Source: Clostridiales bacterium (lineage in GTDB: Bacteria; Bacillota; Clostridia; Saccharofermentanales; Saccharofermentanaceae). Taken from it: a DNA stretch of 47,662 nucleotides. The position numbers and the translations under genes were made by a program. The notes beneath the pieces are model-generated. The model was not told the origin of the DNA, made no database searches, and saw only the letters and a program-made list of their open reading frames with translations. Location: positions 1 to 47,662 of the forward strand of contig JAFZPJ010000041.1 in the NCBI GenBank assembly GCA_017550385.1, read 5' to 3'. This document shows positions 18,630-36,097 of this stretch, one piece after another. Every line of letters begins with the position of its first letter. Within the stretch, counting starts at the first letter, position 1.

Positions 18630-19069
18630 TGAAAAAATTCTTCAAATATTCATTTGTCATTGGTCTGATCGGAGCTGTAGTCAACCTTATTTTGTTTGTG
18701 ACTAATCTATTCTATGAACTGGTCGTGCCCGTGATCGAGAACTCAAGCCTTGAAGAAGGCCCGGTATTCGATTTCTTCGATAACCTTATCTATTTCACGC
18801 CTTGCATTTTCATGGTGCTGTTTGTTCTATACATAGTCGCAGGAATAATCTACAAAAAGAAGTTCCACGAGAAGAACGAAGAGAAAGAGACGGAAAAGCT
18901 CGTAGAGAAAAATACCGCCATCCAGAAAGAACTCGACGTTGAGGCGGAGTTCTTAAAGCACAAGTATTATACCAACTGTCCGAACTGCGGATCGGTCAGG
19001 GTGGAGAATACCAGCGTGTGCTCATTTTGCGGCGCATCGCTTGTTATAGGCGAAGATAAAGAGAAGTAA
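18629..19069 (+). CDS. Small membrane protein with zinc ribbon
   Basis: A 146-residue protein with two membrane segments (about 8-28 and 53-72), a charged E/K-rich linker, and a zinc ribbon at the end (CPNCGSVRVENTSVCSFCG). The ribbon closely resembles that of the preceding gene, with which it overlaps by one base, so they are probably partners or diverged copies. The LKHKYYTNCPNCG lead-in matches the partner's SKKRYYNSCPNCG. The function is unknown. Confidence 0.75.
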   Translation: MKKFFKYSFVIGLIGAVVNLILFVTNLFYELVVPVIENSSLEEGPVFDFFDNLIYFTPCIFMVLFVLYIVAGIIYKKKFHEKNEEKETEKLVEKNTAIQKELDVEAEFLKHKYYTNCPNCGSVRVENTSVCSFCGASLVIGEDKEK

Positions 19070-31311: not shown

Positions 31312-32667
31312 ATAGTTGCCCGTGAAGCAGGCGTCGCAGTATCTGAAGTCGTCGCCGCCGAGCATGTCGTTAAGATCGGCAGGCTCGAGGTAGCCCAGAG
31401 AATCCGCTCCGATGCTGCTGCAGATCTCGGGGATCGTATGCGTACACGCGATAAGGTGTTCCTCATCGGGGACGTCCGTACCGTAATAACACGGATGCAG
31501 GAACGGCGGCGAGCTGATCCTGACGTGGACCTCGGTCGCGCCCGCATTGCGAAGCAGATGTATCTGGTCCGCTATCGTGTTGCCTCTTACGATCGAATCA
31601 TCGATAATGACAACTCTCTTGCCCTTGACGACGGAAGAGATTGGGTTGAGCTTGATCTTGACGGCCTGTTTGCGCTGCTCCTGCGAAGGCTTGATGAACG
31701 TTCTGCCGACGTAGGAATTCTTCACGAAACCCTTCTCGTAGGGGATGCCTGACTCAGCGGCAAATCCCAGCGCCGCATCGATGCCCGACTCAGGAACGCC
31801 GATGACGATGTCGCAGTCGCACGGGTGCTTCCTGGCAAGTATCCTTCCTGCCTCACGCCTTGCATCCGCCACGGCAATGCCGTCTATCACGGAGTCCGGT
31901 CTTGCAAAGTATATGTACTCGAAAACGCATTTCTTCATGCCGCGCTTAATGCCGGAATCAATGGACTTCACGTTGCCGTCTTCGACCACGATGATCTCGC
32001 CGGGGTTAACGTCTCTAATAAAATCCGCGCCTACTGCTTCGAGTGCGCATGTCTCGGAACAGAAGATGTATGCACCGTCCAGCATGCCCATGACGAGGGG
32101 CTTAAGTCCGAAGGGGTCACGTGCTGCGATGAGCTTGCGGGGGCTCATGACGAGAAGAGCATAGCCGCCCTTGATGAGTCCCATTACTTCCTTGACCGCC
32201 TCCTCGACGGAAGGAGTTGTTGCTCTCTTAAGTGCGATGAGATATGCGATGACTTCAGAGTCTGTAGTTGTATGGAAGATGGCGCCCTTGTCCACGAGCT
32301 CGCTCTTGAGCTCCTGTGCGTTGGTAAGGTTGCCGTTATGTGCGATGGATATCGTTCCCTTGGAATAGTGGGAGACTATGGGCTGTGCGTTCTCGGGAAC
32401 GCTGGCGCCTGATGTGGAATAGCGGACGTGGCCGATCGCCATGTCGCCTGTGAGGGACTGGATCTTGTCTTTGCTGAGCACGTCGCTTACGAGGCCCATG
32501 CCCTTGACGCACTTTACGTCGAATTCGTTGTCGGCGAGAGAAGTTGTGGCGATGCCGCAGCTTTCCTGTCCCCTGTGCTGGAGGCTGAAAAGCCCGTAAT
32601 AAACATCACCGGCGCAGTCCTTGCTGCCGTAGATACCGAATACTCCGCATTCCTCATGTATGGCCAT
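31300..32667 (-). CDS. purF: Amidophosphoribosyltransferase PurF
   Basis: A 455-residue enzyme for the first committed step of purine synthesis, PRPP plus glutamine to phosphoribosylamine. A six-residue propeptide (MAIHEE) precedes the catalytic Cys7 of the glutamine amidotransferase domain (CGVFGIYG). The phosphoribosyltransferase domain has the PRPP loop VVIIDDSIVRGNT near residue 350. Cysteines near the C-terminus (PCYYG, CTHTIPEIC, YCDACF) fit the [4Fe-4S] cluster of the B. subtilis-type enzyme. No Shine-Dalgarno sequence precedes the ATG. TAAAAT ends six bases before it, as in the other leaderless candidates here. Confidence 0.97.
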   Translation of the reverse strand: MAIHEECGVFGIYGSKDCAGDVYYGLFSLQHRGQESCGIATTSLADNEFDVKCVKGMGLVSDVLSKDKIQSLTGDMAIGHVRYSTSGASVPENAQPIVSHYSKGTISIAHNGNLTNAQELKSELVDKGAIFHTTTDSEVIAYLIALKRATTPSVEEAVKEVMGLIKGGYALLVMSPRKLIAARDPFGLKPLVMGMLDGAYIFCSETCALEAVGADFIRDVNPGEIIVVEDGNVKSIDSGIKRGMKKCVFEYIYFARPDSVIDGIAVADARREAGRILARKHPCDCDIVIGVPESGIDAALGFAAESGIPYEKGFVKNSYVGRTFIKPSQEQRKQAVKIKLNPISSVVKGKRVVIIDDSIVRGNTIADQIHLLRNAGATEVHVRISSPPFLHPCYYGTDVPDEEHLIACTHTIPEICSSIGADSLGYLEPADLNDMLGGDDFRYCDACFTGNYPER

Positions 32668-32673
32668 GCGTAG

Positions 32674-32679
32674 ATTTTA
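32674..32679 (-). promoter_or_regulatory. purF -10-like element six bases from the ATG
   Basis: TAAAAT on the minus strand ends six bases before the purF start codon. There is no convincing -35 at 16-18 bp, so the promoter call is tentative. Confidence 0.45.
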
Positions 32680-32807
32680 CACCCAAGTTCAAAAAGTACA
32701 CCGCAATAAATCATATATATTTCTTTGCGCCAACTATACCTGTTTTGTATGAAACACCAATTACAACTAATACTTGCAACTGCCCGCCCGTTATGATAAT
32801 CTTCGGG

Positions 32808-33089
32808 AAACCATTGATGAAGAGTGAGTAGGCTTTATCATCTTATTCCCAGAGAGTTGCGGATGGTGTGATCGCAGCAATAAGGATTCAGCCGAATGGA
32901 CTTCAGAGGGCGACAGGAAATGCGCAGAGCAGAGTATTGAAGCCGGAGTGTGGACCTCCGTTAACAAAGTTCGGCATATGTTAAGTATGCGCTAAGAGGA
33001 TGTAGCAATAGCACATCAAGCCGGGTGGCACCGCAGGTAGTATCTACAACCTGTCCCAGCAGCAACAAACTGCAGGGGCAGGTTTTTTG
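32808..33089 (+). promoter_or_regulatory. Tryptophan T-box riboswitch
   Basis: A T-box leader that reads uncharged tRNA-Trp and allows trpB2 transcription when tryptophan is short. The antiterminator bulge lies in GGGTGGCACCGC (33023-33034). Its TGGC pairs with a GCCA end, as expected for tRNA-Trp with discriminator G. The specifier is TGG (32897-32899) in GAATGGACT, a Trp codon followed by a purine. Stem I marks include GAAGAGTGAGTAGG near the 5' end. The terminator is at 33048-33089. A -10-like GATAAT is at 32795-32800. Confidence 0.93.
33048..33089 (+). terminator. T-box regulated terminator
   Basis: AACCTGTCCC pairs with GGGGCAGGTT around an internal CAG/CTG extension, followed by TTTTTT. 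It competes with the antiterminator carrying TGGCACCGC. Confidence 0.9.
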
Positions 33090-33135
33090 TTTATCTGTCC
33101 CGACAAAAACACTTTATGTAAGGAGGACACCAAAG

Positions 33136-34512
33136 ATGTCAGACGCAAAAATACCGTACAAGATCTACTTGACCGAAGAAGAGATGCCTAAGGCTTGGTA
33201 TAACCTCAGGGCTGACATGAAGAACAAGCCCGCTCCGCTTCTCAATCCCGGCACGGGCAAGCCGCTCGCAGCTGAAGAGCTTACTCCCATCTTCTGCGAG
33301 GAGCTCGTTAAGCAGGAGCTCGACAACGACACCAAGTTCTTCGATATCCCTGATGAGATCTTAAGCTTCTACAAGATGTTCAGACCTTCACCCCTCGTTC
33401 GTGCTTACTGCCTCGAGGAGAAGCTCGGAACACCTGCAAAGATCTACTATAAGTTCGAAGGTAACAACACCAGCGGAAGCCACAAGCTGAACTCCGCCAT
33501 CGCTCAGGCATACTATGCTAAGAAGCAGGGCCTCAAGGGCGTTACCACAGAGACGGGTGCAGGCCAGTGGGGCACGGCACTTTCGATGGCATGCGCATAC
33601 CTCGGCCTCGACTGCAAGGTCTACATGGTTAAGGTATCCTACGAGCAGAAGCCTTTCAGAAGAGAAGTCATGAGAACATACGGCGCTTCCGTTGTTCCTT
33701 CTCCTTCCGATACGACAGAAGTCGGCCGCAAGATCCTCGCCGAGTTCCCCGGCACAACGGGAAGCCTCGGCTGCGCTATCTCTGAGGCAGTTGAAGTCGC
33801 AACAAAGAACCCCGGCTACAGATACGTTCTTGGTTCAGTACTTAACCAGGTGCTTCTCCACCAGTCCGTTATCGGTCTCGAGACAAAGGCAGCTCTCGAC
33901 AAGTACGGCATCAAGCCCGACACGATCATCGGCTGCGCAGGCGGCGGATCGAACCTTGGCGGTCTTATCGCACCTTTCATGGGCGAGAAGCTCAGAGGCG
34001 AGGCTGACTACCAGATCATCGCTGTCGAGCCGGCTTCCTGCCCGAGCTTCACACGCGGCACATACGCATACGATTTCTGCGACACAGGTATGATCTGCCC
34101 TCTCGCGAAAATGTACACTCTCGGCAGCTCCTTCATCCCTTCTGCAAACCACGCAGGCGGCCTGAGATTCCACGGCATGAGCTCCACACTCTCGCAGCTC
34201 TATCACGACGGTTACATGGAAGCAAGAGCAGTCGAGCAGACGAGCGTTTTCGAGGCTGCAGAGATGTTCGCAAGAACAGAAGGCATCCTGCCCGCACCTG
34301 AGAGCTCACACGCTATCAGAGTTGCTATCGACGAAGCGCTCAAGTGCAAGGAGACAGGCGAAGAGAAGACGATCGTATTCGGTCTTACCGGTACAGGCTA
34401 CTTCGACCTCGTTGCTTACCAGAAGTACAACGACGGCGAGATGAGCGACTACATCCCGACAGACGAAGACATCGCAGCATCCATCGCGAAGCTTCCGAAG
34501 GTAGGAGAATAA
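33136..34512 (+). CDS. trpB: Tryptophan synthase beta chain, TrpB2 type
   Basis: A 458-residue PLP enzyme that joins indole and serine to make tryptophan. The long N-terminus (about 80 residues before RPSPLVRAYCLEE) and the overall pattern mark the TrpB2 branch, which often acts without TrpA. The PLP lysine is K117 in NTSGSHKLNSA, and the phosphate loop is CAGGGSNLGG. No trpA or other trp gene is adjacent, so it may salvage indole made by neighbours; that is inference. The ATG is set by AGGAGG at 33121-33126. Expression is under the Trp T-box. Confidence 0.96.
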   Translation: MSDAKIPYKIYLTEEEMPKAWYNLRADMKNKPAPLLNPGTGKPLAAEELTPIFCEELVKQELDNDTKFFDIPDEILSFYKMFRPSPLVRAYCLEEKLGTPAKIYYKFEGNNTSGSHKLNSAIAQAYYAKKQGLKGVTTETGAGQWGTALSMACAYLGLDCKVYMVKVSYEQKPFRREVMRTYGASVVPSPSDTTEVGRKILAEFPGTTGSLGCAISEAVEVATKNPGYRYVLGSVLNQVLLHQSVIGLETKAALDKYGIKPDTIIGCAGGGSNLGGLIAPFMGEKLRGEADYQIIAVEPASCPSFTRGTYAYDFCDTGMICPLAKMYTLGSSFIPSANHAGGLRFHGMSSTLSQLYHDGYMEARAVEQTSVFEAAEMFARTEGILPAPESSHAIRVAIDEALKCKETGEEKTIVFGLTGTGYFDLVAYQKYNDGEMSDYIPTDEDIAASIAKLPKVGE

Positions 34513-34516
34513 GTAG

Positions 34517-34544
34517 TTTACAAGATACGATCAAGGTGTATAAT
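34517..34544 (+). promoter_or_regulatory. Promoter of the pheA leader transcript
   Basis: TTTACA (34517-34522), a 16-bp spacer and a perfect TATAAT (34539-34544). It lies right after the trpB2 stop and six bases before the leader-peptide ATG. Confidence 0.88.
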
Positions 34545-34550
34545 TGCCAC

Positions 34551-34616
34551 ATGAACAATTTTGAGTTTACAAGCTTTGGATTTACGTTTTTTGCCTTTAC
34601 GAGTAGGGGTAAGTAG
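34551..34616 (+). CDS. Phe-rich leader peptide of pheA
   Basis: A 21-codon frame (begins MNNFEF, ends TSRGK) with seven phenylalanines at positions 4, 6, 9, 11, 13, 14 and 16, all TTT, then the TAG stop. No Shine-Dalgarno sequence is present, and the ATG lies six bases after TATAAT, so translation is probably leaderless. The stop codon touches the 5' strand of the antiterminator helix. By analogy with pheL of enteric bacteria, ribosomes stalled at Phe codons would leave that strand free and let pheA be transcribed. Confidence 0.85.
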   Translation: MNNFEFTSFGFTFFAFTSRGK

Positions 34617-34695
34617 TTCACTGCATGTAAATATATACTTGATTTACGTATGATAAGGCCCCGCAGTGAACAAGACTGCGGGGCTTATTGTTTTG
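34616..34695 (+). promoter_or_regulatory. Phe attenuator: mutually exclusive antiterminator and terminator
   Basis: Antiterminator: GTTCACTGC (34616-34624) pairs perfectly with GCAGTGAAC (34663-34671). Terminator: 34656-34667 pairs with 34675-34686 over 12 bp (core CCCCGCAGT/ACTGCGGGG), followed by ATTGTTTT. They share GCAGT, so only one can form. A smaller hairpin, GTAAAT/ATTTAC (34627-34632/34642-34647), sits inside the antiterminator loop. The layout is that of ribosome-mediated attenuation. Confidence 0.88.
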
Positions 34696-34711
34696 CAAAG
34701 GAGAGAAGAAC

Positions 34712-35842
34712 ATGACACAGAAAGAAGCAGGCAAGAGGATCGAAGAGATAGACGAGAAGATCAAGCAGCTCTTCGCAGAGAGGTTAGAAGCCAGCAAGAC
34801 CGCGAACGAGACTCTCACCAAGTCCGAGATCATTCAGAAGAGCAGAAGATACGAGAGAAGTTACCTCTCAAGTCTCGACAGTTCGAATTCGCTTATCGAT
34901 AATTACGAGCGCGTTCTTTTCTCCACGATGTTTAACCTGAGCCACTCATACCGCAACACCGAGTACGGCACCCGCACAGACTTGGCGGACAAGATCAAGG
35001 CCGCGCTCGAGAACACTCCCAAGGAACTTCCCAAGTCACCGATGGTTGCCTGCCAGGGCATCGAAGGCGCGTACTCGCAGATCGCGACGGACAAGATCTT
35101 CCGTCATGCGAACATAATGTACTTCAGGACTTTCGACGGCGTCTTCCAGGCGGTCGAATCAGGTCTGTGCGAATACGGCGTGCTGCCCATCGAGAACTCT
35201 TCCTACGGCTCCGTCACGCAGGTATATGACCTCATGGTCGGACACAACTTCCACATCGTAAAAGACTACAAGCTGAGGATCAGCCACAAGCTCCTCGCAA
35301 ACCACGGTGCCAAGCTCGAAGACATCCGTGAGGTATACTCCCACAACCAGGCCATCGGCCAGTGCAGCAAGTTCTTAAAGGAACACCCGGACATCAAGGT
35401 CAACATCGTAGAGAACACAGCAGTTGCTGCCAAGAGCGTAGCTGATTCCGGCCGCACCGATGTCGCTGCGATATCTTCTGCTGACTGCCAGATGCTGTAC
35501 GGACTCGAGTCACTGAGCGACGAGATCCAGAACACGGATAATAACTACACGCGCTTCATCTGCATCACCAAGGAACTCATGATCTTCCCCGGCGCATCCA
35601 AGACATCCATCATGCTGGCATTGGGTCACACTCCGGGAGCGCTCGCAGACACCCTCGCTAAGTTCTCGTCTTTGGGTCTTAACCTCACAAAGATCGAATC
35701 ACGCCCGATGTCCGGCAAGGACTTCGAGTTCATGTTCTACCTCGACTTCGAGGCGTCGGTGTACTCCGAGGAAGTCATCACGCTCCTGTGCGAGCTCGAC
35801 GCCGAGCCGACGGAATTTGCTTACCTGGGAACGTATATCTGA
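34712..35842 (+). CDS. pheA: Chorismate mutase / prephenate dehydratase PheA
   Basis: A 376-residue bifunctional P-protein making phenylpyruvate from chorismate. Residues 1 to about 85 are an AroQ-type chorismate mutase helix bundle (RIEEIDEKIKQLFAERLE). The prephenate dehydratase domain (about 112-290) shows CQGIEGAYSQ, VLPIENSSYGSV and the catalytic TRF (280-282). The C-terminal ACT domain has GALADTLAKF and the Phe-binding ESRP (329-332), so feedback inhibition by Phe is expected. The ATG follows AAGGAG by eight bases. Phe therefore acts twice, by attenuation and by the ACT domain. Confidence 0.97.
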   Translation: MTQKEAGKRIEEIDEKIKQLFAERLEASKTANETLTKSEIIQKSRRYERSYLSSLDSSNSLIDNYERVLFSTMFNLSHSYRNTEYGTRTDLADKIKAALENTPKELPKSPMVACQGIEGAYSQIATDKIFRHANIMYFRTFDGVFQAVESGLCEYGVLPIENSSYGSVTQVYDLMVGHNFHIVKDYKLRISHKLLANHGAKLEDIREVYSHNQAIGQCSKFLKEHPDIKVNIVENTAVAAKSVADSGRTDVAAISSADCQMLYGLESLSDEIQNTDNNYTRFICITKELMIFPGASKTSIMLALGHTPGALADTLAKFSSLGLNLTKIESRPMSGKDFEFMFYLDFEASVYSEEVITLLCELDAEPTEFAYLGTYI

Positions 35843-35851
35843 CCTTGGCTG

Positions 35852-35857
35852 TATAAT
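35852..35857 (+). promoter_or_regulatory. -10 element of the 77-residue gene, leaderless layout
   Basis: A perfect TATAAT directly after the pheA stop ends six bases before the next ATG. No good -35 is visible at 16-18 bp. Confidence 0.6.
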
Positions 35858-35863
35858 GGTGAC

Positions 35864-36097
35864 ATGAAGTTACCGAAGATCTTTCAGCATAAAGATAATG
35901 CGGACACCGGGATCAAGTTCGATCCCGGGACGCAGTATGCCGTCATCCGCAGTTCGATCTGCACCGGAGAGAAAGTCGCCGGGTTCAAGGACAAGAAGGG
36001 CGGACACTTCACCGAAGTAATGGTGATAAGGTCCGCCGATGACGAGCGCAGGTTCAAGGAGATCTACGGCCTGGATTCCGTCCGCACGGAATACTGA
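35864..36097 (+). CDS. Short conserved-looking protein, unknown function
   Basis: A 77-residue soluble protein with YAVIRSSICTGEKVAGFKD and FTEVMVIRSADDERRFKEIYGLDSV. It resembles short proteins of other Clostridia that databases sometimes label aspartate dehydrogenase without good reason; it is far too short for that enzyme. A compact alpha/beta domain is likely. No ribosome-binding site is present, and the ATG lies six bases after TATAAT, so it may be leaderless. It ends one base before the convergent LysR gene. Confidence 0.7.
   Translation: MKLPKIFQHKDNADTGIKFDPGTQYAVIRSSICTGEKVAGFKDKKGGHFTEVMVIRSADDERRFKEIYGLDSVRTEY

What the first reader, a model, noticed from the sequence alone, without database searches (positions are those of the whole stretch)
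34517..34712. Phe-rich leader peptide and attenuator upstream of pheA in a Clostridia-type genome
Seen: strong promoter, ATG six bases from TATAAT, 21-codon frame with seven TTT Phe codons, stop codon touching the antiterminator strand (34616-34624), a perfect 9-bp antiterminator with 34663-34671, and an overlapping 12-bp terminator with a T-rich tail. Known: this is the logic of pheL/pheA attenuation in enterics, while Firmicutes usually control aromatic genes through T-boxes, one of which precedes trpB2 next door. Inference: ribosome stalling at Phe codons permits pheA expression, and translation starts on a leaderless mRNA.
Basis: partly seen in the sequence, partly recalled or inferred. 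Interest (0 to 1): 0.92.

Follow-up and report, generated by a model that had tools for sequence, protein, structure and literature searches.

The report
Leaderless phenylalanine attenuator before pheA
A rumen-type clostridium and most of its relatives carry, just before their phenylalanine-making gene, a tiny phenylalanine-rich reading frame and a three-way RNA switch that should turn the gene on only when phenylalanine runs short; the frame seems to start at the very first bases of the message, and in some relatives a changed copy of the switch sits before another gene.

Summary
In the tool's genus of the window (named records include Saccharofermentans, Clostridia), 65 of 76 genomes with an assessable pheA start carry the same element: TATAAT (63) or TAAAAT (2), 6-9 bases, ATG, a peptide of 17-30 residues with 5-10 Phe (49 different peptides), and three mutually exclusive helices, 1:2, 2:3 and 3:4, with covariation above slid and shuffled controls on most measures. 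In the other 11 no Phe-rich frame and no model match was found there. No Shine-Dalgarno lies between -10 box and ATG, and the genome has many genes built this way, so the leader is very probably leaderless. In a folding model, a stall at the first Phe codon frees the antiterminator in 45 of 46 leaders; a ribosome at the stop codon blocks it in 44 of 46. In nine close relatives a second copy lies before glmS, hairpins kept, Phe codons mostly replaced by Ile and Tyr. This is classical ribosome-mediated attenuation in an unusual form: Phe-specific, leaderless, in a T-box-using clostridium, and once duplicated to a new target. There are no expression data; the mechanism is inferred.

The parts
34517..34544 (+). 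promoter TTTACA-16-TATAAT; expected start of transcription at or next to the A of the ATG, 34551
   Evidence: -10 box TATAAT in 63 and TAAAAT in 2 of 65 leaders
34551..34616 (+). leader peptide ORF without 5' leader, MNNFEFTSFGFTFFAFTSRGK*, seven TTT codons
   Evidence: 65 genomes counting this one
34565..34574 (+). segment 1 (GTTTACAAGC), pairs with segment 2; contains the Phe6 codon and is covered by a ribosome stalled at Phe4
   Evidence: covariation of helix 1:2; model
34616..34632 (+). segment 2: 34616-34624 is the 5' arm of the antiterminator, 34623-34632 pairs with segment 1
34658..34671 (+). segment 3: 34663-34671 pairs with segment 2; the stretch also holds the 5' arm of the terminator
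34656..34696 (+). intrinsic terminator (helix 3:4, 12 pairs) and T-rich tail
34712..35842 (+). pheA, prephenate dehydratase with a chorismate-mutase-like N-terminal part, the controlled gene (SD AAAGGAG 34697-34703)
   Evidence: Pfam PDT 4.8e-58; no chorismate mutase domain reached E 0.001 in Pfam; NCBIfam bifunctional model aligned over 8-375 but below its cut-off
32805..33061 (+). T-box upstream of the trpB-like gene 33136-34512; neighbour, not part of the attenuator

Best explanation
A ribosome-mediated transcription attenuator for pheA. RNA polymerase starts at or within about three bases of the ATG, so a ribosome must initiate on a message with no 5' leader. If Phe-tRNA is scarce the ribosome stalls on the first TTT codons, covering segment 1; segment 2 then pairs with segment 3 as it emerges (antiterminator) and polymerase reads into pheA. 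If Phe-tRNA is plentiful the ribosome reaches the stop codon, covers segment 2, and 3:4 forms and terminates. If nothing is translated, 1:2 may form first and leave 3:4 free, so that the default is off. Shown here: the parts, their conservation, covariation of the three helices, the geometry. Inferred: start site, translation, stalling, response to phenylalanine.
For: 65 of 76 assessable genus genomes share promoter, Phe-rich frame and hairpins; 11 showed neither. Phe is 309 of 958 codons (32%) in 46 leaders against 8.6% and 12.8% in the other two frames; one Phe column varies only TTT 22 / TTC 10 among 32 aligned leaders and two are invariant. All 48 gap runs in columns 1-62 of the alignment are multiples of three. 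Doubly changed cells: helix 1:2 24 (at most 10 when slid), 2:3 29 (at most 6), 3:4 24 (at most 7); in each case 0 of 500 shuffles reach them. Antiterminator probability before segment 4 exists is at least 0.5 with a stall at the first Phe codon in 45 of 46 leaders and below 0.1 with the ribosome at the stop in 44 of 46. Leaderless genes: -10-to-ATG gaps of 6 and 7 are over-represented (32 and 22 sites against 15 and 15 for gaps 5 and 8) and open frames of 77 or more codons at 24 of 32 and 12 of 22 sites, against 3 of 15 and 2 of 15.
Against: No transcription or translation data. In the window's RNA the complete leader always prefers the terminator at equilibrium, and without a ribosome the RNA cut before segment 4 prefers 2:3, not 1:2: the switch works only if folding is kinetic, and the 'off by default' step is weakly supported. 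Helix 1:2 is only 80% paired, weak in the long-peptide group, and its count of further pair types is reached by 163 of 500 shuffles; the number of doubly changed pairs in 2:3 (3) is reached by 72 of 500 shuffles and exceeded by two slid versions. The structures were drawn from these sequences, which favours them. Invariant columns are not only Phe: an ACA and a GCC codon are invariant too. L021 and L022 have the stop 15 bases before the arm, so the model does not block their antiterminator. L041 fails the model, probably because its arms are aligned out of register. L020 has a single-base insertion near the end of its frame.
Confidence: 0.88

Rival explanations
1. The hairpin is just the terminator of the trpB-like gene upstream, and the Phe-rich frame is accidental or a small protein gene.
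For: The trpB-like gene ends at 34512 and the scan shows no other terminator between it and pheA; another Phe-rich frame occurs in the window without such a setting.
Against: In most other leaders the bases before the promoter do not hold the end of the trpB-like gene (read by eye; only L002 shares it), yet the element is there. Segments 1 and 2 covary with their partners; Phe codons are conserved in frame. It may still serve as the upstream terminator too.
Confidence: 0.05
2. A ligand-binding riboswitch or tRNA-binding element that happens to contain a frame.
For: The same genome has six T-box matches; a weak hit to Rfam 'trpB ncRNA motif' lies at 34596-34695 (30.4 bits, gathering 59).
Against: No T-box match in the leader; conservation lies in the codons and the switching arms, with no other conserved core seen by eye.
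Confidence: 0.03
3. Ribosome stalling occurs, but as a general gauge of translation or as an arrest peptide, not of Phe-tRNA.
For: The glmS copies keep the hairpins with mostly non-Phe codons, so the design need not be Phe-specific.
Against: Across 49 different pheA peptides the common feature is the number of Phe, not a fixed sequence, and it matches the product of the controlled gene's pathway.
Confidence: 0.06

Closest known systems
pheL-pheA attenuator of enterobacteria (recalled; classical trp-type attenuation)
   Same: Phe-rich leader peptide, alternative antiterminator and terminator, same controlled gene.
   Different: There the leader has a Shine-Dalgarno (recalled). No Rfam leader-peptide family matched here at E <= 5. 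Different phylum.
Leaderless trpL of Sinorhizobium meliloti (PMC7298713, passages read)
   Same: The attenuator RNA starts with the ATG of the leader peptide.
   Different: Trp, Alphaproteobacteria.
ilvBNC attenuator of Corynebacterium glutamicum (PMC11857589, passages read)
   Same: Leader discussed as a leaderless mRNA, with several alternative hairpins.
   Different: Branched-chain amino acids, Actinobacteria.
His leader-peptide attenuators predicted in Firmicutes (PMC2965389, PMC9413887, passages read)
   Same: Ribosome-mediated attenuation predicted in Firmicutes, including Eubacteriales.
   Different: Histidine; the passages read mention no leaderless start.
uORFC-13-1 motif before aroF in Acholeplasma (PMC8632094, section 26 and passages read)
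   Same: Predicted Phe-sensing uORF and terminator on an aromatic pathway gene.
   Different: Has an RBS; 'at least one' Phe; other gene and genus.

Membership tests
classical ribosome-mediated transcription attenuator (trpL type) | short leader frame enriched in codons of the pathway's end product | tested here: met
   5-10 Phe in 65 of 65 leaders (at least 4 was a search criterion); other frames much poorer
classical ribosome-mediated transcription attenuator (trpL type) | mutually exclusive antiterminator (2:3) and intrinsic terminator (3:4) | tested here: met
   covariation on most measures
classical ribosome-mediated transcription attenuator (trpL type) | protector helix 1:2 | tested here: inconclusive
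   covaries beyond controls on four of five measures but is 80% paired, and equilibrium folding does not favour it before segment 4
classical ribosome-mediated transcription attenuator (trpL type) | termination depends on charged cognate tRNA and on translation | not testable with these tools
   needs experiment
leaderless mRNA | -10 box about 6-8 bases from the start codon, no SD between | tested here: met
   gap 6-8 in 64 of 65, 9 in one (L247); GGAG, GAGG or AGGA within 18 bases of the ATG in 6 of 65, each upstream of the -10 box
leaderless mRNA | mapped 5' end at the start codon | not testable with these tools
   no RNA data
T-box (RF00230) | covariance model match in the leader | tested here: not met
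   the only match in 32650-34720 is 32805-33061, before the trpB-like gene
Rfam RF04312 trpB motif | score at or above gathering 59 bits | tested here: not met
   30.4 bits, E = 0.1
Rfam leader-peptide families (a Phe leader family is recalled to exist) | covariance model match | tested here: not met
   three matches at E <= 5 in 32650-34720, none of them a leader-peptide family

The most novel reading that the evidence does not exclude
The leaderless attenuator is a portable cassette. In one group of close relatives it was duplicated to glmS, kept its promoter spacing and switching arms, and changed its sensor codons from Phe to an Ile-Ile-Trp-Phe-Ile-Ser-Tyr-x-Tyr set, so that amino-sugar synthesis answers to the charging of aromatic or branched-chain tRNAs. 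Leaderless initiation would also make the switch blind to read-through RNA: only messages begun at its own promoter are translated, all others terminate by default.
Probability: 0.4. Interest if true: 0.75.

Novelty: new variant of a known kind. Interest (0 to 1): 0.6.

Why it matters
It adds a Phe-specific leader-peptide switch to a group of bacteria usually described as regulating such genes by T-boxes, in a genome that itself has T-box matches before acetolactate synthase, anthranilate synthase, trpB-like and aspS genes. If the start is leaderless, the attenuator is a built-in reporter of leaderless initiation in Clostridia. The glmS copies are a natural experiment in how such a sensor changes its amino acid and its target. 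Two further leader-peptide candidates in other Clostridia (before a DAHP synthase gene and tyrS) suggest that this mode of control is under-recorded there.

Tried and rejected
The first regular expression mis-set the -10 gap in some rows (one search shows 9 for L021, L024-L026, L028, L050); redone with gaps 5-11. Other leaders in the window's own genome by exact TATAAT-N5-8-ATG: of 84 distinct sites I looked at the sequence behind seven short frames (L129 with two Trp codons and L148 among them) and found no further attenuator; the rest were judged from peptide and length only. Distant prephenate dehydratase paralogues and other-order genes: no Phe-rich frame in 20 of 20 stretches; the same in 13 of 13 stretches from other genera of the family. 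Model R1 outside the genus: in 188 genomes of the order, 4 weak matches in 3 genomes, of which 3 were read and look like plain terminators; in a sample of 391 genomes of the class, 16 genomes outside the genus matched, one locus each was read for 15, and none is a pheA element. Of 40 further R1 loci read, 19 are pheA leaders, 9 glmS leaders and 12 neither. Pattern scan of genome contigs: 43 stretches, 33 pheA leaders (two with the gene cut short by the locus end), 2 glmS leaders, 8 unrelated. A plasmid search with PheA was uninformative. That 1:2 wins at equilibrium without a ribosome: tested, not supported. Papers: searches gave none; others gave listings, of which ten papers were opened (passages; one section of PMC8632094). 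In these I met no Phe leader for pheA in Clostridia and no glmS leader peptide; most listed papers were not opened and only open-licence PubMed Central is held, so this does not show absence from print.

Full report
WHAT IS THERE. Upstream of pheA (34712-35842) lies a promoter TTTACA-16-TATAAT, six bases, and an ATG at 34551 that opens a 21-codon frame with seven TTT codons. Its stop touches an arm, 34616-34624, that pairs perfectly with 34663-34671; that second stretch is also part of a 12-pair terminator, 34656-34686, with a T-rich tail. The coordinates in the finding are right. The controlled protein has a prephenate dehydratase domain (Pfam 4.8e-58) and aligns over 8-375 to the bifunctional chorismate mutase/prephenate dehydratase model, below that model's cut-off.

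IS IT MORE THAN CHANCE. The leader folds better than 199 of 200 shuffles. Phe-richness alone would not be enough: one frame on the other strand, 18850-18921, has eight Phe. Conservation decides. The window is contig C55 of assembly G000. The genus name is thus an inference.

DISTRIBUTION. Of 85 genomes of the genus, 76 have a pheA of the window's type (42-100% identical) whose start region could be read. In 65 of them a Phe-rich leader was found (46, 19 more, all rechecked). In 11 none was found: L038-L040 and L048 and L274-L280; R1 has no match before those genes either, though R1 also missed the true leader of G010. The other 9 are one gene cut by a contig end (G119), three genomes with only a distant paralogue (G013, G021, G036) and five without a match. 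The 65 peptides (49 different ones) are 17-30 residues long with 5-10 Phe; the -10 box is TATAAT in 63 and TAAAAT in 2; the gap to the ATG is 6 in 39, 7 in 22, 8 in 3 and 9 in 1. Outside the genus R1 found no pheA element in 188 genomes of the order or in a sample of 391 of the class, where 3 of 4 and 15 of the loci were read; large runs used stricter filters that lose weak matches. Upstream stretches of 13 genes from other genera of the family had no Phe-rich frame.

CODING EVIDENCE. In 46 leaders 309 of 958 codons after the start are Phe (256 TTT, 53 TTC); the other two frames give 8.6% and 12.8% Phe. Among 32 aligned leaders two Phe columns are invariant TTT, another varies only between TTT (22) and TTC (10), others are Phe in 28, 30, 24 and 13 of 32; an ACA and a GCC codon are invariant too. 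All 48 gap runs in columns 1-62 of the alignment are multiples of three; L020 has one single-base insertion just beyond.

THREE HELICES. On the alignment of 46 leaders (A1) helix 2:3 is 96.6% paired with 29 doubly changed cells (at most 6 when slid), helix 3:4 96.5% with 24 (at most 7), and helix 1:2, between codons 5-8 of the peptide and segment 2, 80.0% with 24 (at most 10); 0 of 500 shuffles reach these. Two measures do not stand out: further pair types in 1:2 (163 of 500 shuffles) and the number of doubly changed pairs in 2:3 (3; 72 of 500 shuffles, and 4 in two slid versions). The structures were drawn from these sequences, which favours them. A clear example is L049, where segments 1 and 2 have both changed and stay fully complementary over 8 bases. 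The helices exclude each other, as in trp attenuation.

LEADERLESS START. A -10 box ending 6-8 bases before the ATG puts the transcript start on or next to the ATG. GGAG, GAGG or AGGA occurs within 18 bases of the ATG in 6 of 65 leaders, each time upstream of the -10 box. The genome as a whole shows the same habit: TATAAT-N5-8-ATG occurs 85 times against 39 for the reversed pattern; of 84 distinct sites, gaps 5, 6, 7 and 8 have 15, 32, 22 and 15, and frames of at least 77 codons begin at 3, 24, 12 and 2 of them. Some of those frames may be chance or antisense. One, at 35864, begins 21 bases after pheA ends. A survey found leaderless genes in Firmicutes concentrated in Lactobacillales and Mycoplasma (PMC3160421, passages read).

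HOW IT SHOULD WORK. With an assumed footprint of 14 bases from the A-site, a ribosome at the first Phe codon leaves the antiterminator free (probability at least 0.5 in 45 of 46 leaders, before segment 4 exists); at the stop codon it is blocked (below 0.1 in 44 of 46). The two exceptions at the stop, L021 and L022, have it 15 bases upstream of the arm. L041 is the exception at the first Phe, probably through misalignment of its arms. In the window's complete RNA the terminator wins at equilibrium whatever the ribosome does, so the choice must be made during transcription. Without a ribosome, the RNA cut before segment 4 prefers 2:3 over 1:2; 1:2 can matter only by forming first. This is the weakest step.

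A SECOND TARGET. R1 also found a second leader in nine genomes, just before glmS (L231-L238 and L244; glmS named). L089 and L092 are two of these again. Eight of the nine also have the pheA leader; the ninth (G026) had no pheA match. The peptide is MK(I/M)IWFISY(A/E)YAL..., after TAAAAT and six bases. By eye it aligns residue by residue with the pheA leader of the same group, Phe changed mostly to Ile, Tyr and Leu; positions 4, 6, 7 and 11 vary only synonymously and position 3 is Ile in seven and Met in two. The nine glmS genes are the nine nearest to the query, 94-100% against 85% or less (no tree was built). Twenty-one further glmS upstream regions of the genus had no such leader (30 of 78 genomes with glmS read, the nine included). 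What the glmS leader senses is unknown. A link to the glmS ribozyme was considered and dropped: see Tried and rejected.

CONTEXT. The same genome has six T-box matches, two over the cut-off; the genes behind four of them are acetolactate synthase, anthranilate synthase, aspartate-tRNA ligase and the trpB-like gene. So this genome uses tRNA-binding leaders for several pathways and a translated leader for Phe.

COMPARISON. Leaderless attenuators are known in S. meliloti trpL (PMC7298713) and C. glutamicum ilvBNC (PMC11857589). His leader peptides have been predicted in Firmicutes (PMC2965389, PMC9413887), and a Phe-containing uORF with an RBS before aroF in Acholeplasma (PMC8632094, section 26). 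Passages were also read of PMC1262725, PMC4833913, PMC10272879 and PMC11109978. The combination found here was not met in those passages.

VERDICT. A well-supported case of a known class in a new form: new variant of a known kind.

Noticed in passing
L231-L238, L244 (L089:5703 and L092:3416 are two of these again): A paralogous attenuator with a leader MK(I/M)IWFISY(A/E)YAL... sits before glmS in nine close relatives.
   Followed up: yes
L271, L272, L273 (downstream of the ribozyme at 1501 on): The glmS ribozyme (RF00234) of this genus precedes nagB, glucosamine-6-phosphate deaminase, not glmS, in the 3 of 12 loci read (family search for L271 only, the other two by likeness).
   Followed up: partly
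L338 (G466), L342-L348: An SD-led leader peptide rich in Phe and Tyr (e.g. MSLFVFAAAYFYFYFIMTRSKSDLCCK) with a terminator precedes a DAHP synthase gene in another clostridial genus; the region matches in 7 of 7 genomes of that genus.
   Followed up: partly
L330 (G529), L341 (G563): An SD-led leader peptide with three Tyr codons in a row, then a possible antiterminator and a terminator, precedes tyrS; kept in 2 of 2 genomes of its genus.
   Followed up: partly
window 35852-36097: A 77-residue frame begins TATAAT-N6-ATG, 21 bases after pheA, apparently another leaderless gene; no Pfam match at E 0.001.
   Followed up: partly
L053-L059: Several genus members have a second, distant prephenate dehydratase-like protein, some of which begin like lipoproteins (by eye); no Phe-rich leader before it.
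   Followed up: no
window 33136-34512: The gene under the T-box matches NCBIfam's 'TrpB-like PLP-dependent enzyme' better than TrpB itself.
   Followed up: no
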